Below are positions 7,898 to 24,080 of a DNA stretch of 64,000 nucleotides, piece by piece. The notes below the pieces were generated by a model. That model did no database searches. It saw only the letters and a list, made by a program, of their open reading frames with translations, and was not told the DNA's origin. The translations under genes were made by a program, and so were the position numbers. This DNA is from Akkermansia muciniphila (GTDB lineage: Bacteria > Verrucomicrobiota > Verrucomicrobiia > Verrucomicrobiales > Akkermansiaceae), in contig CAMDLP010000005.1 of NCBI GenBank assembly GCA_945901795.1, forward strand, positions 1-64,000, written 5' to 3'. Position 1 is the stretch's first letter. The number at the start of each line of letters is the position of its first letter.

Positions 7898-8689
7898 ATG
7901 GCCAAAGTCTTCGGAATTCTCACCGCTATCGTCCTCGCCCTCGCGGCTGTCGTGTTTTTCAAAAACAAGGAGCAATTTGAGTTGCGCACCGCGGAAACTC
8001 AGACCGAAAAAGATCTCCTCACCAAGAGCGAGGCACGACTCAAGGCGGCCAACGAAGTCCTGGAAGCCCTGCCTATCGAAATCGCCGGCGTGGATGCCGA
8101 GGTCGAAAGTTTGACCACCGCCGAAGCGGCCCAGCAAAAATCCAATGACGCGGCCAAGGCGGAGATCGACGCCACCACCGCCAAGATCGCCGCGAACAAG
8201 GAGCAGCTCGATGGCATCCGTGACAAGACTTCCAAAATGGGAGACTTGAAAGAACTCTCCTCGAAGATGCGCGCGACCAGCGGCGAACTCGAGGAACTGG
8301 CCCAGTCCATCACTGCCAGCGAGGCCAAACTCTCCGACCTCACCGCCCAGGATACCGCCCTGAAAGCCGACATCGAGGGAGCCAAATTCAAAGTCGATAC
8401 CTTCGCCAGCGGCCAGTCGCTTCCTTCCTTGAAAACCCGCATCCGCTCCATCTATCCGAACTGGGGCTTCGTCACTCTCGCCTCCGGCAACAATGCTGGC
8501 GTGATGGCCAACTCGACACTCAACGTGGTGCGTGACGGTGAGACCATTGCCAAGCTTCTGGTCACCGCCGTCGAGGCCGGTTCCTCATCCGCCAGCATCG
8601 TGCCGGATTCGCTCGCACCGGACGTCACTCTCCAGGTCGGTGATCGGGTGATACCGGGACAAGCAGCCGCAAAAGCCACCAGCAACTGA
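7898..8689 (+). CDS. membrane-anchored coiled-coil protein, paralogue 1
   Basis: 263 residues of unknown function. One N-terminal transmembrane segment or uncleaved signal (FGILTAIVLALAAVVFF) is followed by a long Glu/Lys/Ala-rich coiled coil (about residues 30-165). A compact, beta-rich C-terminal domain begins near IRSIYPNWGFVTLASG and ends in VTLQVGDRVIPGQA. The next gene has the same architecture and matching C-terminal landmarks (W-G-F-(V/L)-(T/V), G-x-N-(A/S)-G, GDRVI), so the two are tandem paralogues 37 bases apart. The C-terminal domain would lie in the periplasm. The start was chosen as the ATG just before the hydrophobic segment. Confidence 0.75.
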   Translation: MAKVFGILTAIVLALAAVVFFKNKEQFELRTAETQTEKDLLTKSEARLKAANEVLEALPIEIAGVDAEVESLTTAEAAQQKSNDAAKAEIDATTAKIAANKEQLDGIRDKTSKMGDLKELSSKMRATSGELEELAQSITASEAKLSDLTAQDTALKADIEGAKFKVDTFASGQSLPSLKTRIRSIYPNWGFVTLASGNNAGVMANSTLNVVRDGETIAKLLVTAVEAGSSSASIVPDSLAPDVTLQVGDRVIPGQAAAKATSN

Positions 8690-12351: not shown

Positions 12352-12624
12352 ATGCTGAAAACGGAAAAGCTGAAATTGAAGCCCCTCAATCGCCCGGTCG
12401 GCGTTCGCAACGAACCGGTCGGCCCCCGCAACGACCACTTCGGCCCTCGCAACGCACCGGTCGACCCTCGCAACGCACCGGTCGATCCCGGTAACGACCA
12501 CTTCGGCCATCGCAACGGCCCGGTCGATCCCCGTAACGACCACTTCGGCCTTCGCAACGACCCGGTCGGTCCTCGCAACGCACCGGTCGGCCCCCGCAAC
12601 CGCTCCGACGCCTCCCTCTCCTAG
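12352..12624 (+). CDS. heptapeptide-repeat small protein (candidate)
   Basis: A 90-residue frame starting MLKTEKLKLKPL, followed by ten 7-residue units of the type (A/D/E/G)-(P/H)-(V/F)-(G/D)-P-R-N, then a short serine-rich tail. Units alternate between APVDPRN/APVGPRN and DHFGPRN forms. Differences between units include third-position changes that keep the residue (GAC/GAT, CCC/CCT, CGC/CGT), which supports this strand and frame as coding. Other frames are also open through the repeat, so this is a candidate only. No known domain is recognised. The unknown helical protein gene starts 29 bases downstream. Confidence 0.4.
   Translation: MLKTEKLKLKPLNRPVGVRNEPVGPRNDHFGPRNAPVDPRNAPVDPGNDHFGHRNGPVDPRNDHFGLRNDPVGPRNAPVGPRNRSDASLS
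12391..12600. repeat. ten tandem 21-bp units (minisatellite)
   Basis: Exactly ten consecutive units of 21 bases, each ending in an AAC or TAAC-type AAC triplet, for example GCACCGGTCGACCCTCGCAAC (12454-12474) and GACCACTTCGGCCCTCGCAAC (12433-12453). Two sub-families alternate (CCGGTCG versus CACTTCG cores). A period of 21 keeps all frames in phase, so copy-number change would add or remove whole heptapeptides. It is not a CRISPR: there are no spacers. Confidence 0.9.
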
Positions 12625-13531: not shown

Positions 13532-16500
13532 ATGAATCCTCCCAAATTCAATTACCACGACCTACCTGCTCTTGAAAGCTCCGTCGTCCGGGAAGACACC
13601 ATCGAATACGGTTTCATCGGCACCCTCCAAAAGCTGAAATACGAATACCGCCCGGACATCACCGACCGCGCCACGCTGGAAGCCAATTTCCGCGAAAAAT
13701 TCGAGTCCCTCAACCGCGTCCGCCTCACCGACGCCGAGTTCGCCCGCCTGCTCGACGAGATCGTCACCCCGGATGTCTTCACCGCCTCGAAAACCCTGCG
13801 GGCCATCAGCAGTTTCACCCGCGATGACGGCACGCCGCTGAACTACACCCTCGTCAACATCAAGGACTGGTGCAAAAACACCTTCGAAGTCGTCCGGCAG
13901 CTCCGCATCAACACGGACAACAGCCACCACCGCTACGATGTGATCCTCCTCATCAACGGCGTGCCTTGCGTGCAGATCGAGCTCAAGACCCTCGGCATCA
14001 GCCCGCGCCGCGCCATGGAGCAGATCGTCGAATACAAGCACGATCCCGGCAACGGCTACACCAAGACGCTGCTCTGCTTCATGCAGCTCTTCATCGTCAG
14101 CAACCGCGACCGCACCTACTACTTCGCCAACAACAACGCCCGCCACTTCGCCTTCAACGCCGACGAGCGCTTCCTTCCCGTCTACGAATATGCTGACGAG
14201 GCAAACCGGAAGATCACCCATCTCGAAGAATTCGCCGACGCCTTCCTGAAAAAGTGCGACCTCGGCCGCACCATCAGCCGCTACATGGTGCTCATCGCCA
14301 GTGAGCAGAAGCTCATGATCATGCGGCCCTACCAGGTCTATGCCGTGAAGCACATGGTCACGTGCATCGATGACGACAATGGCAACGGCTACATCTGGCA
14401 CACCACCGGCAGCGGCAAGACGCTTACCTCCTTCAAGGCCGCCACCCTGCTCAAGGAAAACGAGCACATCCACAAGTGCGTCTTCGTCGTGGACCGCAAG
14501 GATCTTGACCGCCAGACGCGCGAAGAGTTCAACCGCTTCCAGGAAGGCTGCGTGGAGGAAAACACCAACACCGCCGCCCTCGTCCGCCGACTGCTTTCCG
14601 AGGACTACGCGGACAAGGTCATCGTCACCACCATCCAGAAGCTCGGCCTCGCGCTGGATGAAAACAGCAAGCGCAACAAGCAGCGGAGCAAGAACGGCCA
14701 GGCCACCTTCAAGGAACAGCTCTCCGCACTGAAGGACAAACGCATCGTCTTCATCTTCGACGAGTGCCACCGCTCGCAGTTCGGGGAAAACCACAAGGCC
14801 ATCAAGGAGTTCTTCCCCAAGGCCCAGCTCTTCGGCTTCACCGGCACGCCCATCTTCGAGACGAACGCCTCCTTCCAGAAAATCGAGGACACGCAGGCCT
14901 CCATGCGCACCACGGAAGACCTCTTCCAGAAGCAGCTCCACGCCTACACCATCACCCATGCCATCGACGACGGGAATGTCCTGCGCTTCCACATCGACTA
15001 CTTCAAGCCCAAGGAGGAAAACGACAAGAAGCCGCCGAAACCCGGCGAGGCCATCGCCAAGCGCGCCGTTATCGAGGCCATTCTCACCAAGCACGATACT
15101 TCCACCGCCCATCGCCGCTTCAATGCCATCCTCGCCACCTCGTCCATCAATGACGCCATCGAATACCATGGCCTGTTCAAAACGATGCAGGCGGACAAAC
15201 AGGCCGCCGATCCCGAGTTCAAACCGCTGAACATCGCCTGCGTCTTCTCCCCGCCCGCCGAGGGCGACCCGGATGTGAAACAGATTCAGGAAGATCTGCC
15301 GCAGGAGCAGGCGGACAACGAGGAAGACCCCGAGGGCAAAAAAGCCGCGCTCAAGGCCATCATGGCGGATTACAATGCCCGCTACGGCACGAATCACCGC
15401 ATCTCCGATTTCGATCTCTACTATCAGGACATTCAGAAGCGCATCAAGGACCAGCAGTGGCCGAACTCTGATTTTCCCGCCGCGCAGAAGATCGACATCA
15501 CCATCGTCGTGGACATGCTTCTCACCGGCTTCGATTCCAAGTTCCTGAACACGCTCTACGTGGACAAGACGCTCAAGCATCACGGCCTCATCCAGGCTTT
15601 CTCCCGCACCAACCGCGTGCTCAACGGCACCAAACCTTACGGCAACATCCTCGACTTCCGCCAGCAGCAGGACGCCGTGGATGCCGCCATCGCCCTCTTC
15701 TCCGGGGAGAAATCCGGCGAGCAGGCGCGGGAAATCTGGCTCGTGGAAAAGGCCCCCGTAGTCATCCAGAAGCTGGAGGCCGCCGTCCAGCAGTTGGACA
15801 CCTTCATGAAGTCCCAGGGCCTCGACTGCACGCCCTCCGCCGTGGCGAATCTCATGGGCGATGCCGCCAAGGCCGCCTTCTGCACCCAGTTCAAGGAAGT
15901 CCAGCGGCTCAAAACCCAGCTCGACCAATACACCGACCTCACCGAGGAAAACAAAGCCAGCATCGAGCAGGTGCTGCCAGAGGAAAACCTGCGCGGCTTC
16001 AAGGGTCAGTATCTGGAAACCGCCAAGCGGCTCAAAGAGCAGCAGGGCAAGGGCGGTGACAAGCCTGGCTCCGACGAGCCCGTGGATCAGATCGACTTCG
16101 AGTTCGTGCTCTTCGCCTCCGCCGTCATCGATTACGACTACATCATGAGCCTCATCGCCAAGTTCTCGGAGAAAGGTCCGGGCAAATCGAAGATGACCCG
16201 CGAGGAACTCATCGGCCTCATCAGCGCCGATGCCAAGTTCATGAACGAGCGCGACGACATCGCCGAATACATCGGCACGCTCAAGGCGGGCGAGGGCCTC
16301 AGCGAAACCGCCATCCGCGACGGCTACACCCGCTTCAAGGCGGAGAAAAACGCCAAGGAACTCGCCGCCATCGCCGCCCGGCACGGCCTCGCCACCGTCG
16401 CCCTGCAATCTTTCGTGGACGGCATCCTCGACCGCATGATCTTCGATGGCGAGCAGCTCGGTGACCTCATGGCCCCGCTCGACCTCGGCTGGAAAGCCCG

Positions 16501-16600
16501 CACCCAGGCCGAACTCGCCCTCATGGCCGATCTGCACCCACTCCTCACTAAACGCGCCGGTGGCCGCGACATCTCAGGACTCAGCGCGTATGAGCAGTAA
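13532..16600 (+). CDS. hsdR: type I restriction enzyme, R (endonuclease/translocase) subunit
   Basis: A 1022-residue HsdR. The N-terminal nuclease domain has the PD-(D/E)xK pattern, with an Asp in the RYDVILLING strand and the QIELKTLG strand. The SF2 translocase follows with Walker A WHTTGSGKTLTSFKA, DEAD-box variant FIFDECHRSQFG, motif III LFGFTGTP and the arginine-finger region IQAFSRTNRVLNG. A helical C-terminus that docks to the methylase completes it. The protein cuts DNA after ATP-driven translocation when the HsdS-specified site is unmethylated. The length is normal. hsdS overlaps its end by 11 bases. The large open frames on the opposite strand are composition artefacts. Confidence 0.96.
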   Translation: MNPPKFNYHDLPALESSVVREDTIEYGFIGTLQKLKYEYRPDITDRATLEANFREKFESLNRVRLTDAEFARLLDEIVTPDVFTASKTLRAISSFTRDDGTPLNYTLVNIKDWCKNTFEVVRQLRINTDNSHHRYDVILLINGVPCVQIELKTLGISPRRAMEQIVEYKHDPGNGYTKTLLCFMQLFIVSNRDRTYYFANNNARHFAFNADERFLPVYEYADEANRKITHLEEFADAFLKKCDLGRTISRYMVLIASEQKLMIMRPYQVYAVKHMVTCIDDDNGNGYIWHTTGSGKTLTSFKAATLLKENEHIHKCVFVVDRKDLDRQTREEFNRFQEGCVEENTNTAALVRRLLSEDYADKVIVTTIQKLGLALDENSKRNKQRSKNGQATFKEQLSALKDKRIVFIFDECHRSQFGENHKAIKEFFPKAQLFGFTGTPIFETNASFQKIEDTQASMRTTEDLFQKQLHAYTITHAIDDGNVLRFHIDYFKPKEENDKKPPKPGEAIAKRAVIEAILTKHDTSTAHRRFNAILATSSINDAIEYHGLFKTMQADKQAADPEFKPLNIACVFSPPAEGDPDVKQIQEDLPQEQADNEEDPEGKKAALKAIMADYNARYGTNHRISDFDLYYQDIQKRIKDQQWPNSDFPAAQKIDITIVVDMLLTGFDSKFLNTLYVDKTLKHHGLIQAFSRTNRVLNGTKPYGNILDFRQQQDAVDAAIALFSGEKSGEQAREIWLVEKAPVVIQKLEAAVQQLDTFMKSQGLDCTPSAVANLMGDAAKAAFCTQFKEVQRLKTQLDQYTDLTEENKASIEQVLPEENLRGFKGQYLETAKRLKEQQGKGGDKPGSDEPVDQIDFEFVLFASAVIDYDYIMSLIAKFSEKGPGKSKMTREELIGLISADAKFMNERDDIAEYIGTLKAGEGLSETAIRDGYTRFKAEKNAKELAAIAARHGLATVALQSFVDGILDRMIFDGEQLGDLMAPLDLGWKARTQAELALMADLHPLLTKRAGGRDISGLSAYEQ

Positions 16601-17840
16601 AACGAAAACCACCGCCAAGAAGGATAAGGCAATGCCCGCGCTGGTGCCGAAGCTACGGTTTCCAGAGTTCCGTGACTTGCAAAACTGGAGCGAAACCAAT
16701 GTGGGCAGGATTTCCGATACCGTCACTGCGGGAGGAACACCGAGCACTTCCGAGAAAAGGTTCTGGGGTGGTGATATCAGGTGGATGAACTCTGGTGAAC
16801 TGAATGATAAAAAGGTGTCAGAGGTTCAGGGCCGTATCACGCGTGAGGGGTTGAGTAATTCCAGCACCAAAGTAATTCCTCCACGCTGCGTCTTGATAGG
16901 CTTGGCTGGGCAAGGGAAGACACGCGGCACCGTGGCAATGAACTTGGTTGAGTTGTGCATCAACCAATCAATTGCCGCAATCTATCCGAACAACTCGGCA
17001 TTCAATAGTGACTTTCTTTATCACGATCTGGATAAGAGATACGATGAGCTAAGGCGTCTCTCGGCGGGTGGAGAGGGTCGAGGCGGACTCAATCTTCAGA
17101 TTATTAAATCGTTGAAGGTCGCTCTTCCGTCTCTCCCCGAACAACAAAAAATCGCGGAATGCCTGAGTTCGGTGGACGAGCTGTTGGCCGCGCAAGCGCG
17201 GAAACTGGACGCGCTCAAGACCCATAAAAAAGGGCTGATGCAGCAGCTTATCCCCCGCGAAGGCGAAACCCAACCCCGCCTCCGCTTCCCCGAATTCCAA
17301 AACGCCGGGGAGTGGCACCAGAAATCACTCGGCGGCTTATGCCGCATCCGAACCGGAAAGAAGGATGCCAACGAGGGTGCGGCAGATGGAACTTATCCGT
17401 TTTTCACTTGCGCCGAAAAGCACATCTACAGCCACAGCTATTCATTCGACGCAGAGGCTATCTTAATTGCCGGGAACGCCAACGTGGGGCAGACGAACTA
17501 CTACAACGGCAAATTCGAGGCATATCAGAGAACCTACGTTTTGACTGACTTTGGCGACATCTTTGTCCCGTATCTGTATTCGGTCTTGAGCGCGAATTTG
17601 CGGCCCGATTTGCTGGCTCAGGTTCAGACAAGCGCAATGAGCTACATCCGGCTTCCCATGCTGGAAGAATACCAAATCAACGCTCCTACCTCTCAAGCCG
17701 AACAACAACGCATCGCCGCCTGTCTCACCAGCCTCGACGACCTCATCGCCGCGCAAACCCAAAAGCTCGAAGCCCTCAAGACCCACAAGAAAGGCCTGAT
17801 GCAGCAGCTTTTCCCATCCCGGGAGGAGGTCGAATCATGA
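16590..17840 (+). CDS. hsdS: type I restriction enzyme, S (specificity) subunit
   Basis: A 416-residue HsdS with two target-recognition domains (about residues 15-165 and 230-365), each followed by a conserved helical spacer. The spacers are near-repeats: LPSLPEQQKIAECLSSVDEL then ALKTHKKGLMQQLIP, and later SQAEQQRIAACLTSLDDL then ALKTHKKGLMQQLFP. Together they define a bipartite recognition site. The start ATG at 16590 lies inside hsdR (overlap 11). The frame is open further upstream, but the MSSKTKTTAKKDK start fits. Base composition is visibly more AT-rich than in hsdR, as is common for shuffled specificity genes. The stop overlaps the next start (ATGA). Confidence 0.95.
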   Translation: MSSKTKTTAKKDKAMPALVPKLRFPEFRDLQNWSETNVGRISDTVTAGGTPSTSEKRFWGGDIRWMNSGELNDKKVSEVQGRITREGLSNSSTKVIPPRCVLIGLAGQGKTRGTVAMNLVELCINQSIAAIYPNNSAFNSDFLYHDLDKRYDELRRLSAGGEGRGGLNLQIIKSLKVALPSLPEQQKIAECLSSVDELLAAQARKLDALKTHKKGLMQQLIPREGETQPRLRFPEFQNAGEWHQKSLGGLCRIRTGKKDANEGAADGTYPFFTCAEKHIYSHSYSFDAEAILIAGNANVGQTNYYNGKFEAYQRTYVLTDFGDIFVPYLYSVLSANLRPDLLAQVQTSAMSYIRLPMLEEYQINAPTSQAEQQRIAACLTSLDDLIAAQTQKLEALKTHKKGLMQQLFPSREEVES

Positions 17841-18946
17841 GCGCAACGCCACCAATCACACTGCCTGAAGTTGCAGCACAGCTACGCGACGAGCTAAAGA
17901 AGAAGAGGTTTGTTTTGCTCTACGCTCACAATGGGACGGGCAAAACGCGGCTTTCCGGCGAATTTAAGAAGATCGGCAAGCGAGTCGATGATGAAGGCGT
18001 CACCGTCAAGCGAGACACGCTCTACTTCAACGCGTTTACCGAAGACCTCTTCAACTGGGACAACGATCTGGAGTATGATCAAGACCGCAGGTTGATCATG
18101 AACAGGGATTCGACCTTCTTCGACGGCCTCAGCAGCCTGGAGATGGATGTGAAGATTGGCCAGCAATTGGAGCACTATGCCGATTTCAATTTCTACATCG
18201 ACTACGAAGAGTCGTACGTCATTTTCTTCCGGGAGCGGGACAAAGAGAACAATCCCATCCCGATCAAGGTTTCACGCGGTGAGGAGAATATCTTCATCTG
18301 GTGCTTCTTCCTCGCGATTCTTCAGATCGTCATCGATGACGACGAAGACAATCCCTATGACTGGGTGGAGTATGTTTACATCGACGACCCGATCTCGTCG
18401 CTTGATGAGCACAATGCAGTCAAAGTCGCGCATGACTTGACGGATATGCTCGCGGGCTCCCGCGAAACCCTGCGTGTGGTAATTTCAACGCATCACGTCC
18501 TCTTCTACAATGTCATCGCTAACCAGTTCCGCAAAAAGGCGTCCAAATTGTATCTCACCAAAGGTGACGACCACGAAACATACCGGCTAGAGAGTCTGGG
18601 GAGCGTCCCGCCATTTCATCACCTTTCCACCCTTGTCGAGCTGTCGAGAGTTCAAGACGGTGCCCAGCTCAACACACAGCATTTTAACATGCTCCGCCGC
18701 GTTCTGGAGCAAACAGCGGCGTTCTTTGGCTATGAAAGTTGGGATGAATGCCTGAATCCGAAAAAAGGCGAAACAGAAAAGGCATTTCAAAAGCGCCTGT
18801 TGGACCTCAGCAGCCACGGCGACTACCTGATTTTTCAAAGCTCGATGATTGACGATAAAATGCGGACACAGTTCAGAGTGATCTTTGAACAGTTCCGTGC
18901 CAACTTCCCATTCAACAACGCGCTATTTAGCAACGACGACGTATGA
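17837..18946 (+). CDS. prrC: PrrC/RloC-like anticodon nuclease (ABC-ATPase domain with C-terminal tRNase)
   Basis: A 369-residue protein with an ABC-type ATPase core: Walker A LLYAHNGTGKTRLSG (residues 28-41), a degenerate signature VSRGEENIF (145-153), Walker B YVYIDDPISSLDE (179-191) and H-switch VISTHHVLF (215-223). The C-terminal part carries R287-x3-E291 and, 36 residues later, H327 in LDLSSHGDY. This matches the Arg-x3-Glu ... His catalytic triad known for PrrC and RloC anticodon nucleases. In known loci prrC sits within a type I hsd operon, and the enzyme is held silent until phage proteins disturb the restriction complex. It then cleaves tRNA-Lys. Here the gene overlaps hsdS by four bases, the expected context. 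The length is close to E. coli PrrC (about 396). Substrate is unproven. Confidence 0.78.
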   Translation: MSATPPITLPEVAAQLRDELKKKRFVLLYAHNGTGKTRLSGEFKKIGKRVDDEGVTVKRDTLYFNAFTEDLFNWDNDLEYDQDRRLIMNRDSTFFDGLSSLEMDVKIGQQLEHYADFNFYIDYEESYVIFFRERDKENNPIPIKVSRGEENIFIWCFFLAILQIVIDDDEDNPYDWVEYVYIDDPISSLDEHNAVKVAHDLTDMLAGSRETLRVVISTHHVLFYNVIANQFRKKASKLYLTKGDDHETYRLESLGSVPPFHHLSTLVELSRVQDGAQLNTQHFNMLRRVLEQTAAFFGYESWDECLNPKKGETEKAFQKRLLDLSSHGDYLIFQSSMIDDKMRTQFRVIFEQFRANFPFNNALFSNDDV

Positions 18947-19413
18947 AGCAGCCCTACAAGCCCCATCAGATCGAAGAATTTCTCCGGCTTGAGAAATGTC
19001 TGCCACCCGGCGACACGCTGGAATTGGAGAAAATGAGTAAGGGGGCGGGGCGCCATTTCGAGACGCGCCCGCAGTTGCTAGACGGGCCTTTTGTAGACAT
19101 GCGCTACCTGGGCAAGGCTCCCGAACTGGACAATCCAGAAACCTACGACGCCAGTTTCCTGATGGCCAACCAACGGGTGCGGGGCGTGGGATTTGAAGCC
19201 ATCGGTCGCCGGAATTTCCGCTTCAAGGAGCGAGTTCCCAAGGGCTGGCACCTGAATGTCTGCGATCCGAATCTGCCGACCAACGATCCCAAGCAGAACG
19301 TCCATCATCCCTTGCCGGATTTCAAAACCACGGATTTCCGGGATTTCATCAACCAGACCGCCAAGATGTGGAACATTGACCTTGGCTGGGAATGGGAAGG
19401 AGGATTATTCTGA
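18943..19413 (+). CDS. unknown 156-aa protein coupled to prrC-like gene
   Basis: A 156-residue soluble protein with no recognised domain. It opens MKQPYKPHQIEEFLRLEKCL and has many aromatic and Pro-Asn-Asp residues in its second half (WHLNVCDPNLPTNDPKQN, KMWNIDLGWEWEGG). There is no signal or membrane segment. It starts within the prrC stop (ATGA overlap) and its stop shares one base with the next start (TGATG), so it is translated in step with both neighbours. A role as a silencing partner or activator of the nuclease is a guess from this position. Confidence 0.65.
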   Translation: MKQPYKPHQIEEFLRLEKCLPPGDTLELEKMSKGAGRHFETRPQLLDGPFVDMRYLGKAPELDNPETYDASFLMANQRVRGVGFEAIGRRNFRFKERVPKGWHLNVCDPNLPTNDPKQNVHHPLPDFKTTDFRDFINQTAKMWNIDLGWEWEGGLF

Positions 19414-20198
19414 TGAGCACCGAGACAAAACTTTCATCCACCGATCTGCGCGGGCTGCTCACCTCCTTCTGGGACGAGTCGCTGGAAATCGAATCCACGC
19501 CCAAAGGTCTGCTTTTCACCATGCCCGCCTCGTATCCCGACGGCTGGCAGGTAGTGCTGGAACTGAGCCAGAAGACCCCCAGAGGCTTCCGCCTCAGCGA
19601 CCGGGGCAAAACGCTGTCGTGGCTGACCGGGCAGGGACAGAACATCGAGACCGATGCGATGAAGCAGCACCTCCAACGTTTTTGTGTGGAGAATTTCCTG
19701 AAAGAGGAACACGGCGTTCTCTACCGATGGCTGGAATGGCCGCTGGATGCCACCGACATCCATGTCTTCGCTGAGGGTCTGGTGGCGATTTCACGGCTGG
19801 AAATTCTCAACGACCACCGCGCGGCGGAAGAAGAGGTCGCGGACAGCACCGTGCAGCGCATCTTCAGCGACGCCGGCCTCAGCCCAAAACGCAAACACCA
19901 GCTCCACATTACCAAGGAGCGAAAGGTTTCCGTGGACTACTTCGTCCAGCAACGCCGCCCGGTCGCCCTGCAAATCCTCCGCACCAAAACCGATTTCTCC
20001 GGCACGATGGAGAAGTGGGGCTTCCGCTGGAAAGGGCTGAAGGAGAATTACCCCGGCCTTGTACCGGTCATGCTCTACGACCGCGACACCCAGATCATCG
20101 ATCCCTATAGCCGCCACATCGGCGAAACCGAGTGCGAGCTGTTCTGCGGCTACGACGAGACCGACCGCATCCACGAAAAGCTGGCATCCATCCGCTGA
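19413..20198 (+). CDS. DUF1828-like protein
   Basis: 261 residues. The N-terminal 100 residues follow the DUF1828 pattern, a beta-rich stretch of the form L(S/E)L..GF-x-LSD-x-G-x-T(L)xxL, here RGFRLSDRGKTLSWL, preceded by a helix with LLTSFWDESLEIE. The C-terminal half contains VSVDYFVQQRRPVALQILR, reminiscent of a DUF1829/nuclease-like core (D ... Q-x-L), and ends with a conserved-looking LYDRDTQIIDPYS. Proteins of this kind occur in mobile and defence contexts, with no established activity. The start follows the previous stop by sharing one base. The gene ends six bases before the first hsdM fragment. Confidence 0.6.
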   Translation: MSTETKLSSTDLRGLLTSFWDESLEIESTPKGLLFTMPASYPDGWQVVLELSQKTPRGFRLSDRGKTLSWLTGQGQNIETDAMKQHLQRFCVENFLKEEHGVLYRWLEWPLDATDIHVFAEGLVAISRLEILNDHRAAEEEVADSTVQRIFSDAGLSPKRKHQLHITKERKVSVDYFVQQRRPVALQILRTKTDFSGTMEKWGFRWKGLKENYPGLVPVMLYDRDTQIIDPYSRHIGETECELFCGYDETDRIHEKLASIR

Positions 20199-20204
20199 CC
20201 CCCA

Positions 20205-20384
20205 ATGACTGACACCAACCAAAAGCAACTGGGCAACACCCTCTGGAGCATCGCCGACCAACTGCGCGGGGCCATGGATGCGGACGACTTCCGCGACTAC
20301 ATGCTGTCCTTCCTCTTCCTGCGCTATCTCTCCGACAACTACGAGACGGCGGCGAAGAAAAATGCGGAGGAGGTTGCGGCGTGA
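20205..20384 (+). pseudogene. hsdM 5' fragment, copy 1 (59-codon ORF)
   Basis: The 59-codon frame MTDTNQKQLGNTLWSIADQL... is identical for 52 residues to the N-terminus of the intact hsdM at 22458, then ends NAEEVAA-stop. The nucleotide match runs from 20205 to about 20358. The six or seven base differences from the intact gene are all at third codon positions. It is therefore a copy of a gene that evolved under protein-level constraint, not a recent exact duplication. Its stop overlaps the GTG start of the DUF3800 gene (GTGA), so it may act as a leader peptide for coupling. Confidence 0.88.
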
Positions 20385-21232
20385 ATGCGGCGCTGGAGGC
20401 GGAAGGGGCCGATTCAACGCCCCACCGCTATTTCGTGGATGAAACGGGCGATGGAGTGATCTTCGACGGCAAAGGCCGGGTGCTGGTCGGCACGGGCAAG
20501 GTTCAGGACTATTTCACCTTGGGAATGGTGGAGTGCTGGAGCATGGAAGAGCTCACCGCAGATTTGAATACCTTGCGTGCCCAGCTTCTGGCAGACCCGT
20601 ATTTCAAGGGTGTCCCCTCCATGCAACCGGCAGCAGGAAAGACCGCGCTCTTTTTCCATGCCAAGGACGACCTGCCGGAAGTCCGCCGCGAGGTTTTTCA
20701 GGTGCTCCAGCGGCACGACTTCTCCTTCTATGCCGTCGTCCGCACGATGTCGGTGGTGGCCCTGCGGGTGAAATCCCGCAACGAACGGGATCCGACTTAC
20801 CGTTACCGCCCCACGGAACTCTACGACAGCGCGGTCAGGCGGCTCTTTGACAAAAAGCTGCACACCCGCCCGGCCTTCGAGGTGATCTTCGCCAGCCGGG
20901 GCAAGGCCCGTTCCCAAGCCTTGCGGGAACACTTGCTGAAAGCCCAGGTGAAGTCGCCCAAAGCCGCCGACACCTTTCCCGATGCGACGATTCACGTGAG
21001 AGCCATGCCAGCGCACCAACATGCCGGACTGCAAGTGGCGGACTACTGCCTGTGGGCACTGCAAAGGCTCTTCACCAAAGGAGAAGATCGGTTTCTTTCC
21101 CTGATCTGGCCGAAAGTCGGGCTCATCGTGGATGCCGACGACACTTCGGAAAAACCGTATGGCACCTATCACACCCGCAAACGCCCGGCGATGAACGATC
21201 AGGGCATAAAAAATCGGAAGGTAGAGGATTGA
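20381..21232 (+). CDS. DUF3800 domain protein
   Basis: 283 residues with the DUF3800 marks: YFVDETGDG near the N-terminus (D20, E21) and, near residue 225, LQVADYCLWALQRL, the paired Asp motif of a predicted RNase H-like nuclease fold. DUF3800 proteins are frequent in mobile and defence regions; activity is unproven. The start is GTG at 20381, which has a good ribosome site (GGAGGAGG about 8 bases upstream). It overlaps the stop of hsdM fragment 1. The gene lies between hsdM copies 1 and 2 and appears to be an inserted passenger. Confidence 0.8.
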   Translation: MNAALEAEGADSTPHRYFVDETGDGVIFDGKGRVLVGTGKVQDYFTLGMVECWSMEELTADLNTLRAQLLADPYFKGVPSMQPAAGKTALFFHAKDDLPEVRREVFQVLQRHDFSFYAVVRTMSVVALRVKSRNERDPTYRYRPTELYDSAVRRLFDKKLHTRPAFEVIFASRGKARSQALREHLLKAQVKSPKAADTFPDATIHVRAMPAHQHAGLQVADYCLWALQRLFTKGEDRFLSLIWPKVGLIVDADDTSEKPYGTYHTRKRPAMNDQGIKNRKVED

Positions 21233-21343
21233 GCGGCGAACCGACAATCACACGGCATGGAGCCGAATTTCACCTTCCGACACCGGGAAGCTACTTCGAC
21301 CCGCCCAGAACCGCAAACCAAATTTGACACCCCACTATTCCAT

Positions 21344-21436
21344 ATGACAGAGACCAACCAAAAACAACTGGGCAACACCCTCTGGAGCATCGCCGACCAA
21401 CTGCGCGGGGCGATGGATGCGGAAGACTTAAGCTAA
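21344..21436 (+). pseudogene. hsdM 5' fragment, copy 2 (30-codon ORF)
   Basis: A 30-codon frame MTETNQKQLGNTLWSIADQL..., ending DAEDLS-stop. It matches the first 28 or so codons of intact hsdM with two conservative changes (D3E and D27E) plus silent ones. Similarity stops at GACTT, about base 21429. This is the second copy of the hsdM start. It lies between the DUF3800 gene (111 bases upstream) and the RhuM gene (14 bases downstream). Confidence 0.85.
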
Positions 21437-21450
21437 CCAGCTTCAACATC

Positions 21451-22461
21451 ATGAACGACCTCATCCTCTACACCACCGAAGACGGCAGGAGCCAAATCCA
21501 GCTTCGGGCCAAAGATCAAACGGTCTGGCTTTCCCAGCGCGAAATGGCGGAATTGTTCGCTGTGAGCGCGGACAACATCAGCCTGCACCTGAAAAACCTG
21601 TATGAGGACGGGGAACTGAGCAGGGAGGCAACTACCGAGGAATCCTCGGTAGTTCAAATCGAGGGTTCCCGCGAAGTCCAGCGGCCGCTCACGCTCTACA
21701 ACCTGGATGCCATTCTCGCCGTCGGCTACCGGGTGCGCTCGACGCGTGGCGTGCAGTTCCGCCGCTGGGCCTCCACCATCCTCAAGGAATTCCTGATCAA
21801 AGGCTTCGTGATGGATGACGAGCGGATGAAGAATCCGGACGGTCGTCCGGATTACTTCGACGAAATGCTGGAACGCATCCGCGAGATCCGGGCCTCTGAG
21901 AAGCGCTTTTACCAGAAGGTGCGCGACCTCTTTGCGCTGAGCAGCGATTACGATAAGACCGACCGCGCCACCGGACAATTTTTCGCCACGGTGCAGAACA
22001 TCCTGCTCTACGCAGTCACGAGGAAAACCGCCGCCGAATTGATCACCGCTCGGGCAAACCATCATGATCCGAACTTTGGCCTCCTGCATTGGAAGGGTGC
22101 GAAAGTGCGCAAAGGGGACATTCTCACCGCCAAGAACTACCTGACCGAGGATGAGATCGATACCCTGAACCGCCTCGTGGTCATCTTCCTGGAAACCGCC
22201 GAATTAAGGATCAAAAGCCGCCAGGAAATCCACATGAGCTTCTGGAAAGGCAACGTGGATCAGATCATCACCTCCAACGGTTTCCCGCTGCTGGCCCATG
22301 CGGGATCCATTAGCCATGAACAGATGGAGACCCAGACCAGCGCGCTTTATCTCGACTACGACCAGCGCCGGAAGACCCAGGAAGCGCAGGAAGCCGATCA
22401 AGAGGACGATGCTGACCTCAAAGCCTTGGAAACCAAACTAAAGAAACGCCCGAAGAAATGA
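21451..22461 (+). CDS. RhuM family protein
   Basis: A 336-residue RhuM-like protein (named after a Salmonella pathogenicity-island gene). An N-terminal winged-helix-like segment VWLSQREMAELFAVSADNIS is followed by the family core YNLDAILAVGYRVRSTRGV, FRRWASTILKEFLIKGFVMDD and a helical C-terminus with KVRDLFALSSDYDKT. The acidic/basic tail (EADQEDDADLK, KKRPKK) is less conserved. RhuM genes are often found inside hsd operons; biochemical function is unknown, and a regulatory or toxin-like role has been suggested. The stop overlaps the intact hsdM start by four bases. It is bracketed by hsdM copies 2 and 3. Confidence 0.88.
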   Translation: MNDLILYTTEDGRSQIQLRAKDQTVWLSQREMAELFAVSADNISLHLKNLYEDGELSREATTEESSVVQIEGSREVQRPLTLYNLDAILAVGYRVRSTRGVQFRRWASTILKEFLIKGFVMDDERMKNPDGRPDYFDEMLERIREIRASEKRFYQKVRDLFALSSDYDKTDRATGQFFATVQNILLYAVTRKTAAELITARANHHDPNFGLLHWKGAKVRKGDILTAKNYLTEDEIDTLNRLVVIFLETAELRIKSRQEIHMSFWKGNVDQIITSNGFPLLAHAGSISHEQMETQTSALYLDYDQRRKTQEAQEADQEDDADLKALETKLKKRPKK

Positions 22462-24080
22462 CCGACACCAATCAAAAACAACTGGGCAACACCCTCTGGA
22501 GCATCGCCGACCAACTGCGCGGGGCCATGGATGCGGACGACTTCCGCGACTACATGCTGTCCTTCCTTTTCCTGCGCTACCTCTCGGACAACTACGAGAC
22601 GGCGGCGAAGAAGGAGCTGGGGCGGGATTACCCCGATGTGGGCGGTGACCCCCGCAAGGTGCCGCTGGCGCTCTGGTATGCGAACAACGTGGACGACATC
22701 CCGGCCTTCGAGAAGCAGATGCGGCGCAAGGTGCATTATGTCATCCAACCGTCGCATCTCTGGAACAGCATCGCCAATTTTGCCCGCACCCAAAATCCGG
22801 AGCTGCTGAACACGCTGCAAGCGGGCTTCAAATACATCGAGACGGAATCGTTCGAGAGCACCTTCCAAGGCCTGTTCTCCGAGATCGACCTGAGTTCCCC
22901 CAAGCTGGGCAAGAAGTATGAGGACCGGAACGCCAAGCTCTGCACCATCATCCAGAAGATCGCCGAAGGATTGTCGGAGTTCTCCACTGACATCGACGCG
23001 CTGGGCGATGCCTATGAATATCTGATCGGCCAGTTCGCGGCCGGGTCCGGCAAGAAGGCGGGCGAGTTCTACACCCCGCAGCAGATTTCCGACATCCTCT
23101 CCGCCATCGTCACGCTGGACAGCCAGGAACCGAAGACCGGGACCAAGAAGCGGCTGGACAGTGTGATGGACTTCGCCTGCGGCTCCGGCTCCCTGCTTCT
23201 CAACGTCCGCAAGAAGGTGAACAAGGCAGGCGGCACCATCGGCAAAATCTTCGGTCAGGAAAAGAACATCACCACTTACAACCTCGCCCGCATGAACATG
23301 CTGCTGCACGGGGTGAAGGACACGGAGTTCGACATCTTTCACGGCGACACCCTGCTCAACGAGTGGGACATGATGCGGGAGGCGAACCCGGCGAAGAAAC
23401 CCAGCTTCGACGCCATCGTCGCCAACCCGCCTTTCAGCTACCGCTGGGAACCCACCGACGCGCTGGCCGACGACGTGCGCTTCAAAAGCCACGGCCTCGC
23501 CCCCAAGTCCGCCGCCGACTTCGCCTTCCTCCTGCACGGCTTCCACTTCCTCAAGGAAGAGGGCGTGATGGCCATCATCCTGCCGCATGGCGTGCTCTTC
23601 CGTGGCGGTGCCGAAGAACGCATCCGCACCAAGCTGCTCAACGACGGCCACATCGACACCGTCATCGGCCTGCCCGCGAACCTCTTCTACTCCACCGGCA
23701 TCCCCGTCTGCATCCTCGTGCTCAAGAAGTGCAAGAAGCCCAACGACGTCCTCTTCATCAACGCCAGCGGCCCCGAGAACTTCGACAAAGGCAAACGCCA
23801 GAACCAACTCAGCAAGCAGCACATCGCCAAGATCATCGACACCTACCAGTTCCGAAAGGAAGAGCCCCGCTACTCCCGCCGGGTGGAGATGGACGAGATC
23901 AAGAAGAACGACTTCAACCTGAACATCTCCCGCTACATCAGCACGGCAGTGGGTGAGAAAGAGATCAGTTTGGAGGAGATCAACGAAACGCTGGTGGATG
24001 TCGAAAAGGCGGTCATCGCGGCAACGGTGAAGCACAATCAATTCTTGAAAGAGCTAGGTTTGTCGCCGTTGCCAAAATGA
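22458..24080 (+). CDS. hsdM: type I restriction enzyme, M (methyltransferase) subunit
   Basis: A 540-residue N6-adenine DNA methyltransferase. The N-terminal helical HsdM_N domain (about 1-150) is followed by the SAM motif I DFACGSGSLLLNVRKK and catalytic motif IV IVANPPFSYRW (NPPF), and a C-terminal helical part. It pairs with HsdS to methylate the recognition site and with HsdR to restrict. It is the last gene of the operon and is separated from hsdS by 4.6 kb, an unusual arrangement since M and S are normally adjacent. Its first 156 bases are the third copy of the repeated 5' end. Confidence 0.96.
   Translation: MTDTNQKQLGNTLWSIADQLRGAMDADDFRDYMLSFLFLRYLSDNYETAAKKELGRDYPDVGGDPRKVPLALWYANNVDDIPAFEKQMRRKVHYVIQPSHLWNSIANFARTQNPELLNTLQAGFKYIETESFESTFQGLFSEIDLSSPKLGKKYEDRNAKLCTIIQKIAEGLSEFSTDIDALGDAYEYLIGQFAAGSGKKAGEFYTPQQISDILSAIVTLDSQEPKTGTKKRLDSVMDFACGSGSLLLNVRKKVNKAGGTIGKIFGQEKNITTYNLARMNMLLHGVKDTEFDIFHGDTLLNEWDMMREANPAKKPSFDAIVANPPFSYRWEPTDALADDVRFKSHGLAPKSAADFAFLLHGFHFLKEEGVMAIILPHGVLFRGGAEERIRTKLLNDGHIDTVIGLPANLFYSTGIPVCILVLKKCKKPNDVLFINASGPENFDKGKRQNQLSKQHIAKIIDTYQFRKEEPRYSRRVEMDEIKKNDFNLNISRYISTAVGEKEISLEEINETLVDVEKAVIAATVKHNQFLKELGLSPLPK

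What the first reader, a model, noticed from the sequence alone, without database searches (positions are those of the whole stretch)
20205..22613. Three copies of the hsdM 5' end bracket two passenger genes (DUF3800 and RhuM)
The first 156 bases of hsdM (22458) recur at 20205 (about 154 bases) and the first 84 or so recur at 21344. The DUF3800 gene lies between copies 1 and 2, and the RhuM gene between copies 2 and 3. Copy 1 differs from the intact gene only at third codon positions, so its donor was a working hsdM under selection, not a recent tandem duplication. The simplest story is successive recombination between related hsd loci through the shared hsdM start, each event adding a gene plus a new start. 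That would make the hsdM 5' end a docking site for accessory defence genes.
Basis: partly seen in the sequence, partly recalled or inferred. Interest (0 to 1): 0.85.

Follow-up and report, generated by a model that had tools for sequence, protein, structure and literature searches.

The report
Stacked gene-start scars before hsdM
In front of a bacterial DNA-methylation gene lie two cut-short copies of that gene's own beginning, each followed by a different extra gene, and the same kind of fragment sits before hsdM in unrelated bacteria; the fragments are likely scars left each time a candidate defence gene was spliced in from a related system.

Summary
Copy 1 (20205-20360) matches the first 156 nt of hsdM at 149/156, copy 2 (21344-21429) the first 86 nt at 81/86; all differences are at third codon positions. 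The pattern recurs: hsdM 5' fragments lie upstream of hsdM in 13 of 104 loci of this hsdM family, window included, plus two loci found otherwise. In 13 of 15 fragments checked, similarity stops at the hsdM start codon. Passengers include RhuM, DinD, DUF3800, a YhcG nuclease and IS200-like transposases.

Two findings give the mechanism. Some fragments are in-frame fusions of the hsdM start to an hsdS end (L075, L078; 9 of 120 short database proteins), and copy 1's tail resembles an hsdS end (P 0.003-0.005). Genome G502 carries the empty site: the same upstream genes run straight into hsdM. So copy 1 is most likely the resident hsdM start, stranded when passenger-plus-hsdM DNA joined in by one-sided homologous recombination. 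No donor was found; local duplication is not excluded (AU P=0.146) and fits L075 and L037. Vibrio T6SS immunity arrays are the closest precedent.

The parts
13532..16600 (+). hsdR
   Evidence: HSDR_N, SWI2_SNF2, EcoR124_C
16503..17840 (+). hsdS (start approximate); its 3' end is the kind of sequence found fused to hsdM starts elsewhere
   Evidence: Methylase_S, 2 stretches
17837..18946 (+). PrrC-like ATPase, a common passenger of this operon
   Evidence: AAA_13; PADLOC PrrC 1.7e-121
18943..19413 (+). 156-aa ORF, no family; orthologue (79%) in the empty-site genome G502
19392..20198 (+). 268-aa ORF, weak PDC-M24B match; in G502 its 74% orthologue ends 6 nt before hsdM, as here it ends 6 nt before copy 1
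20205..20384 (+). Scar 1: minigene made of copy 1 of the hsdM 5' end (20205-20360) plus a tail whose last 20 nt (20365-20384, stop included) resemble an hsdS 3' end; its TGA overlaps the DUF3800 start
20381..21232 (+). Passenger 1: DUF3800 gene
   Evidence: Pfam 3.7e-9; PADLOC DUF3800_VII 2.8e-7
21344..21436 (+). Scar 2: 30-codon minigene; copy 2 of the hsdM 5' end (21344-21429). ATG-to-RhuM distance 107 nt, as in L009, L021 and L025
21451..22461 (+). Passenger 2: RhuM gene, stop overlaps the hsdM ATG
   Evidence: Virulence_RhuM 8.3e-108; PADLOC PDC-S05 1.4e-145
22458..24080 (+). Intact hsdM; its first 156 nt are copy 3
   Evidence: N6_Mtase, HsdM_N; TIGR00497

Best explanation
Copies 1 and 2 are truncated hsdM starts that were most likely stranded when DNA from related hsd loci, carrying a passenger gene and a complete hsdM, was joined into the resident hsdM. 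Inferred steps: incoming DNA of the form [end of hsdS or another gene]-passenger-hsdM recombines by homology inside hsdM on its right side. On its left side there is no homology, so it joins illegitimately, at short microhomologies, to the first 25 to about 195 nt of the resident hsdM. The product is upstream gene / hsdM-start scar / passenger / complete hsdM. Repeating this would stack passengers: DUF3800, then RhuM nearest hsdM. Joins that keep the reading frame, so that the scar ORF stops at the passenger's start, appear to be favoured; this would keep the operon translationally coupled. Shown directly: the scars, their recurrence, the hsdM::hsdS fusions in two genomes and in nine database proteins, and two empty-site relatives. 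Not shown: any donor, the event itself, or an effect on translation.
For: Recurrence: 13 of 104 loci (103 with upstream sequence); in 12 of 13 the match reaches hsdM nt 1, and L082 is cut by a contig end. L147 and L153 are additional. In 13 of 15 scars the 40 nt before the scar do not resemble the 40 nt before the locus's own hsdM (one of these, L042 scar 1, scores 10 against a shuffle maximum of 8). Fusions: L075 and L078 are in-frame hsdM5'::hsdS3' (scores 88 and 56 against shuffle maxima 19 and 16). Copy 1's last 20 nt equal L007's hsdS end at 18 of 20, stop included; the 20 nt before the stop, tested against 99 hsdS ends, give P 0.0048 (best) and 0.0026 (mean) against random TGA-ending 20-mers. 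9 of 120 fetched short HsdM_N proteins end in HsdS-like tails, five joined at AAK[KRQ]GLMQ.LFP, where hsdM (AAGAAGGAGCTG) and hsdS (AAGAAAGGGCTG) are alike. Empty sites: G502, and L077 (AlbA straight into hsdM) against L042 (AlbA straight into scar). Shared scar: 107 nt in the window and in L009/L021/L025, tails 15-16 of 23 identical (P 1.5e-4), best of 26 other RhuM flanks 12. Frame: 6 of 9 tails stop at the passenger start in the real frame, 1 of 18 in the other frames (P 0.0017). Hot site: hsdS-hsdM gap over 300 nt in 89 of 91 loci.
Against: No donor was found: DUF3800 relatives in 10 other genomes (387 searched, own included) show no hsd gene within the fetched flanks of about 1.5 kb or less. 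Forcing the three copies together is not rejected (AU P=0.146), and L062's scar groups with its own hsdM at 98. In L075 and in L037's first scar the flank upstream of the start codon is copied too (scores 38 and 37 against shuffle maxima 11 and 16), as local duplication predicts; L075 also has tandem hsdS-end repeats. Of nine tails tested, only three (copy 1, L075, L078) beat shuffles; those of scars 2 (both versions), 3, 4, 5 and 13 match no hsdS, PrrC or hsdR end. The window's RhuM does not follow its scar: it is 88% identical to L070's but 80% to L009's and 77% to L025's. The DinD scar shared by L042 and L037 rests on equal length and 12 of 23 tail bases. L057 and L058 score 39.7 and 36.8 bits, within the noise of other tiles. 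In-frame joins could follow from microhomology that keeps the codon phase, without selection.
Confidence: 0.66

Rival explanations
1. Local tandem duplication: the segment from an hsdS 3' end (or passenger) to the hsdM 5' end was duplicated in place and the copies later decayed or were replaced.
For: In L075 and in L037's first scar the flank upstream of the start codon is duplicated as well; L075 has three successive hsdS-end/spacer copies; L062's fragment clusters with its own hsdM at 98, and monophyly of the window copies is not rejected, AU P=0.146.
Against: DUF3800 and RhuM are unrelated families, so duplication alone cannot supply them. In the other 13 of 15 scars, both of the window's included, the upstream flank is not duplicated. 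Copies 1 and 2 each have a nearer allele elsewhere than their neighbour. Copy 1's tail matches L007's hsdS end at 15 of 20 before the stop but the window's own at 11 of 20. Scar 2 occurs in another context.
Confidence: 0.22
2. The minigenes are functional: either a short HsdM-derived peptide or a translation-coupling leader for the passenger, kept by selection.
For: Copies 1 and 2 carry no nonsynonymous difference from hsdM. In-frame closure at the passenger start is enriched. L058 seems to use the hsdM start as the passenger's own N-terminus. hsdM/hsdS translational coupling is reported for EcoKI (start of the abstract of PMC3510504 in the listing).
Against: Some copies lose the peptide: 3-6 amino-acid differences in 30 codons between the L009/L021/L025 minigenes against 1 in their own hsdM starts; an early stop in L042's first scar, a stop short of RhuM in window copy 2, and a lost frame in L037's second scar and in L153. 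In one search, 91 of the 104 loci show no fragment upstream of hsdM (L147, read, is one of these 91).
Confidence: 0.07
3. A site-specific mobile element or cassette system uses the hsdM start as its attachment site.
For: In 12 of 13 loci the match reaches nt 1 and mostly stops there; two passengers resemble IS200-like transposases (L057 1.1e-24; L078 0.00083, below the cut-off).
Against: The fragment's 3' end varies from 25 to about 195 nt; no recombinase family was found in the window's genes from hsdR to hsdM; no inverted repeats of 25 nt or more at 15-32 kb.
Confidence: 0.04
4. Assembly chimera in a metagenome-derived genome.
For: The window genome is in 120 contigs, and many relatives are titled MAG.
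Against: It also occurs in the strain record L021 (Acidithiobacillus ferriphilus DSM 100412); the same 107-nt spacing appears in four separate records.
Confidence: 0.01

Closest known systems
Vibrio T6SS orphan immunity-gene arrays built by displacement (PMC5361080; abstract and passages seen)
   Same: Modules added one after another at a conserved anchor, with remnants of the old gene left behind; the authors propose a route akin to homology-facilitated illegitimate recombination.
   Different: There the anchor is upstream and old immunity genes and effector ends are shifted downstream. Here the inferred anchor is the downstream hsdM, the remnant is the hsdM 5' end, and the locus is a type I restriction operon.
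PrrC-bearing type I R-M operons such as EcoprrI (passages of PMC3874165, PMC3710099, PMC12707154)
   Same: hsd genes with an embedded anticodon-nuclease gene; PMC3710099 also notes RhuM-like genes beside PrrC-like and R-M genes.
   Different: The passages seen do not mention hsdM fragments between the embedded genes.
Rhs/CDI orphan toxin modules (cited within the passages of PMC5361080; otherwise recalled)
   Same: Gene pieces next to a functional gene serve as recombination partners for module exchange.
   Different: Those are 3' tips of one large gene; here whole unrelated genes sit upstream of hsdM.
Homology-facilitated illegitimate recombination (start of the abstract of PMC3240628 in the listing)
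   Same: Homology at one end and an illegitimate join at the other.
   Different: Described from transformation and conjugation experiments; here it is inferred from natural scars at one repeated place.

Membership tests
Type I restriction-modification operon with embedded PrrC | HsdR, HsdS and HsdM with their domains in one operon | tested here: met
   Domains; same strand and near-contiguous (transcription not tested)
Type I restriction-modification operon with embedded PrrC | PrrC-like gene inside the operon | tested here: met
   PADLOC PrrC 1.7e-121
Type I restriction-modification operon with embedded PrrC | Restriction and anticodon-nuclease activity | not testable with these tools
   Needs enzymes or cells
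Arrays built by homology-facilitated illegitimate recombination | Conserved homologous anchor on one side | tested here: met
   hsdM 81-92% identical (protein) in the 80 loci
Arrays built by homology-facilitated illegitimate recombination | Non-homologous join on the other side with a truncated resident gene | tested here: met
   hsdM5'::hsdS3' fusions and variable fragment ends; only 3 of 9 tails could be assigned to an hsdS end
Arrays built by homology-facilitated illegitimate recombination | Relative with the uninserted site | tested here: met
   G502 for the window, L077 for L042
Arrays built by homology-facilitated illegitimate recombination | Copies come from different lineages | tested here: inconclusive
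   Nearest alleles differ, but AU P=0.146 for a single clade
Arrays built by homology-facilitated illegitimate recombination | Identified donor locus | tested here: not met
   No hsd-linked DUF3800 among 10 other matching genomes of 387 searched
Site-specific cassette or transposon insertion | Fixed end sequence, inverted repeats or a resident recombinase | tested here: not met
   No inverted repeats of 25 nt or more; fragment ends 25 to about 195 nt

The most novel reading that the evidence does not exclude
The hsdM start is a general docking port for defence genes. Once made, the hsdM-start scar in front of a passenger becomes a portable homology arm, so scar-passenger-hsdM cassettes can move between bacterial phyla into any hsdM of this family by plain homologous recombination, without a recombinase, and stack in series. 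The shared 107-nt RhuM scar in two different upstream contexts would be the first trace of this, although the RhuM genes behind it are not each other's nearest, so later exchange within RhuM would also be needed.
Probability: 0.3. Interest if true: 0.8.

Novelty: new variant of a known kind. Interest (0 to 1): 0.6.

Why it matters
Defence genes often sit inside restriction operons, but how they get there without transposases or integrases is mostly unseen. If the reading is right, these scars record individual insertion events: where the join fell, what lay upstream in the donor, and in which order passengers came. hsdM-start minigenes would then be a searchable mark of accessory-gene capture, and short 'type I R-M subunit M N-terminal domain' proteins in databases would partly be such scars. 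The mechanism can be tested with ordinary transformation in laboratory strains.

Tried and rejected
Donor of DUF3800: the phylum search of 387 genomes found 11 with a match, own included; in the 10 other fetched loci no hsd gene was adjacent, and one (L173) had a RhuM-like hit. The 268-aa gene against plasmids: no match. PrrC or hsdR ends as the source of the tails of scars 2, 3, 4, 5 and 13: not above shuffles. Tree of the copies: low support around copy 1, monophyly not rejected. The first tile control was spoiled because L147's 'hsdM' was itself a scar followed by RhuM; it was repeated without L147, L141, L060, L066, L157 and L162 as queries. Rows dropped before the count of 104: seven duplicates; L024, L081, L159 and L131 without a usable hsdM start; L153 without hsdM; two loci under 70% identity. 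L055's hit, a second complete hsdM, was set aside. Hits at hsdM about 174-272 (L078, L147, L140) fall on or beside a self-complementary stretch and were dropped. None of the eight plasmid loci L130 and L160-L166 shows a scar. A first estimate of the hsdS-hsdM gap (74 of 74 over 300 nt) used alignment ends and missed L130; it is replaced by 89 of 91 from hsdS stop codons. The first script compared copy 1 one base out of register; corrected. No paper describing hsdM fragments beside passengers appeared in the listings of searches; that library holds only openly licensed PMC papers.
Full report
What is there. The window holds a type I restriction locus in the order hsdR, hsdS, a PrrC-like gene, two unnamed ORFs (156 and 268 aa), then copy 1 / DUF3800 / copy 2 / RhuM / hsdM. 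Copy 1 equals the first 156 nt of hsdM at 149 of 156 positions; copy 2 equals the first 86 nt at 81 of 86; every difference is at a third codon position. Each copy is an open minigene: 59 codons with its TGA overlapping the GTG of DUF3800, and 30 codons ending 14 nt before RhuM. RhuM's stop overlaps the hsdM ATG.

It recurs. Loci came from the species-genome collection (the best 80 of 333), Verrucomicrobiota genomes, viral contigs (8) and plasmids (9 stretches of 410 matching records). After removing 7 duplicates and the rows named in Tried and rejected, 104 loci with an hsdM at least 70% identical remained, 103 with upstream sequence. The first 160 nt of hsdM recur upstream of hsdM in 13 of 104 (L055, a second complete hsdM, set aside): the window, L009, L021, L025, L050, L057, L058, L062, L075, L078, L082, L141 (same locus as L037) and L143 (same locus as L042). 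In twelve the match reaches hsdM nt 1; L082 is cut by the contig end. The queries began at nt 1, so the flanks were compared separately: in 13 of 15 scars the 40 nt before the scar do not resemble the 40 nt before the locus's own hsdM (L042's first scar is slightly above its shuffles, 10 against 8), but in L075 and in L037's first scar they are nearly identical. L147 and L153 (no hsdM on the fetched stretch) are further cases found by other routes. Record titles name Thiobacillus (L009), Acidithiobacillus ferriphilus (L021), Lysobacteraceae (L025), Rhodoferax (L058), a gammaproteobacterium (L082), Spartobacteria (L037, L050), Akkermansia (L042), Verrucomicrobiota (L075), Lentisphaerae (L078), a cyanobacterium (L057) and Kapaibacterium (L062). 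L042 and L037, like the window, carry two scars in series.

Controls. Nine other 160-nt tiles of hsdM gave 0 to 13 loci each in the same upstream regions. The two hits of tile 161-320 (58.3 and 59.7 bits) fall on or beside a self-complementary stretch; all others were at most 42.5 bits, including 13 weak hits of tile 961-1120, of which 11 lie inside hsdR by the coordinates. The first 240 nt of hsdR gave 3 weak hits upstream of hsdR in 61 loci, none at nt 1, and 2 weak hits downstream. The weakest scars, L057 (39.7 bits) and L058 (36.8), are within that noise and rest on their position: they start at nt 1, at or just after the upstream gene's end.

Passengers and place. In 89 of 91 loci with an hsdS end located, hsdS and hsdM are more than 300 nt apart; one (L130) is within 100 nt. 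hsdR and hsdS are more than 300 nt apart in 27 of 74, measured from alignment ends. Passengers behind scars include DUF3800 (window), RhuM (window, L009, L021, L025, L042, L050, L062; shortened or frame-broken in L021 and L062, degraded in L147), DinD (L037, NCBIfam 2.1e-110; L042), a 23S_rRNA_IVP-type four-helix protein (L037), IS200-like transposases (L057 1.1e-24; L078 0.00083, below the cut-off) and a YhcG nuclease (L058). In L058 the hsdM start appears fused in frame to the nuclease and serves as its first codons.

What the scars are made of. In L075 and L078 the fragment is an in-frame fusion of the hsdM start with an hsdS end (scores 88 and 56 against shuffle maxima of 19 and 16). The last 20 nt of the window's copy-1 minigene match L007's hsdS end at 18 of 20, stop included. 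The 20 nt before the stop, compared with 99 hsdS ends, score higher than random TGA-ending 20-mers with P 0.0048 (best match, 15 of 20) and 0.0026 (mean); the window's own hsdS end gives 11 of 20. This is one of nine tails tested; the six others besides L075 and L078 match no hsdS, PrrC or hsdR end above shuffles. Independently, of 1,326 short HsdM_N proteins the 120 listed were examined: 35 end inside hsdM, 9 end in HsdS-like tails and 5 in HsdM C-terminal tails. Five of the nine join at the same point, where hsdM (AAGAAGGAGCTG) and hsdS (AAGAAAGGGCTG) resemble each other, and this is where copy 1 ends too. Their genomic context is not known.

Empty sites. Genome G502 carries orthologues of the 156- and 268-aa ORFs (79% and 74%) followed directly by hsdM, with the same 6-nt gap that separates the 268-aa ORF from copy 1. 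The alignment with the window runs through copy 1 and resumes at the intact hsdM; G502's hsdM start is 86.5% identical to copy 1 and 84.0% to copy 3. L077 has AlbA running into hsdM where L042 has AlbA running into its first scar.

One scar, two contexts. ATG-to-RhuM distance is 107 nt in the window, L009, L021 and L025. The 23 nt before RhuM are 15-16 of 23 identical between the window and these three, while 26 other RhuM flanks reach at most 12 (P 1.5e-4 against random pre-ATG 23-mers). Upstream is DUF3800 in the window and a D12 methyltransferase in the others. This suggests that a made scar can travel. Against it, the window's RhuM is nearer to L070's (88%) and L005's (87%) than to L009's (80%) or L025's (77%), so RhuM itself must have been exchanged or the match is partly chance. 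The parallel case of DinD (L037, L042) has equal length but only 12 of 23 tail bases.

Reading frame. In 6 of 9 scars with a known passenger start, the tail read in the real frame stops exactly at the passenger's start, against 1 of 18 in the other frames (Fisher P 0.0017). In L042 scar 1, counted here, an earlier stop in the hsdM part closes the ORF 33 nt before the passenger. Microhomology in the same codon phase could give this without selection. The peptide itself seems not to be kept: minigenes of L009, L021 and L025 differ by 3-6 amino acids in 30, their own hsdM starts by 1.

Copy 1 is nearest to L144 (97.4%), copy 2 to L055 (97.7%) and copy 3 to L022 (97.4%) among 97 alleles; mean identity of 1,000 random allele pairs is 82.7%. 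In a tree of 84 sequences the three copies do not group, but forcing them together is not rejected (AU P=0.146), and L062's scar groups with its own hsdM (support 98).

Mechanism and standing. The best account is one-sided homologous recombination in hsdM with an illegitimate, microhomology-assisted join on the left, repeated. A like route was proposed for Vibrio T6SS immunity arrays (PMC5361080, passages). Local duplication is a real rival for some scars (L037 scar 1, L062, L075). Measured fragments end within about the first 195 nt of hsdM (L147's end judged by eye); whether this reflects selection against longer HsdM fragments or the joining process is unknown. No donor was found.

Novelty. 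RhuM-like and PrrC-like genes in R-M operons are known (PMC3710099, passages). hsdM-start scars did not appear in the listings of six literature searches. I rate it a new variant of a known kind.

Noticed in passing
L075:2680-3860: Three successive copies of an hsdS 3' end plus spacer between hsdS and hsdM, the last fused to an hsdM start.
   Followed up: partly
hsdM nt about 174-240 in L031 and L041 (own reverse strand); same stretch matched on both strands in L078: Self-complementary stretch inside hsdM that matches its own reverse strand.
   Followed up: no
L055:1-9876: A second complete or near-complete hsdM of this family with its own hsdS and PrrC-like genes, hsdM at 2699 and at 8293.
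   Followed up: no
window 12352-12624: ORF with short repeated peptide units (GPRN/DPRN-rich).
   Followed up: no
P0005, P0054, P0056, P0066, P0115: Short proteins joining the HsdM start to an HsdM-like C-terminus, as internal deletions of hsdM would give.
   Followed up: no
L153:9998-10962: hsdM-start fragment followed by an antitoxin-like ORF and a PIN-like ORF (named by eye, no family search), no hsdM on the fetched stretch.
   Followed up: partly
G000:C47:225-356: A further HsdM_N-like piece (39% identity) near a contig end in the window's own genome.
   Followed up: no
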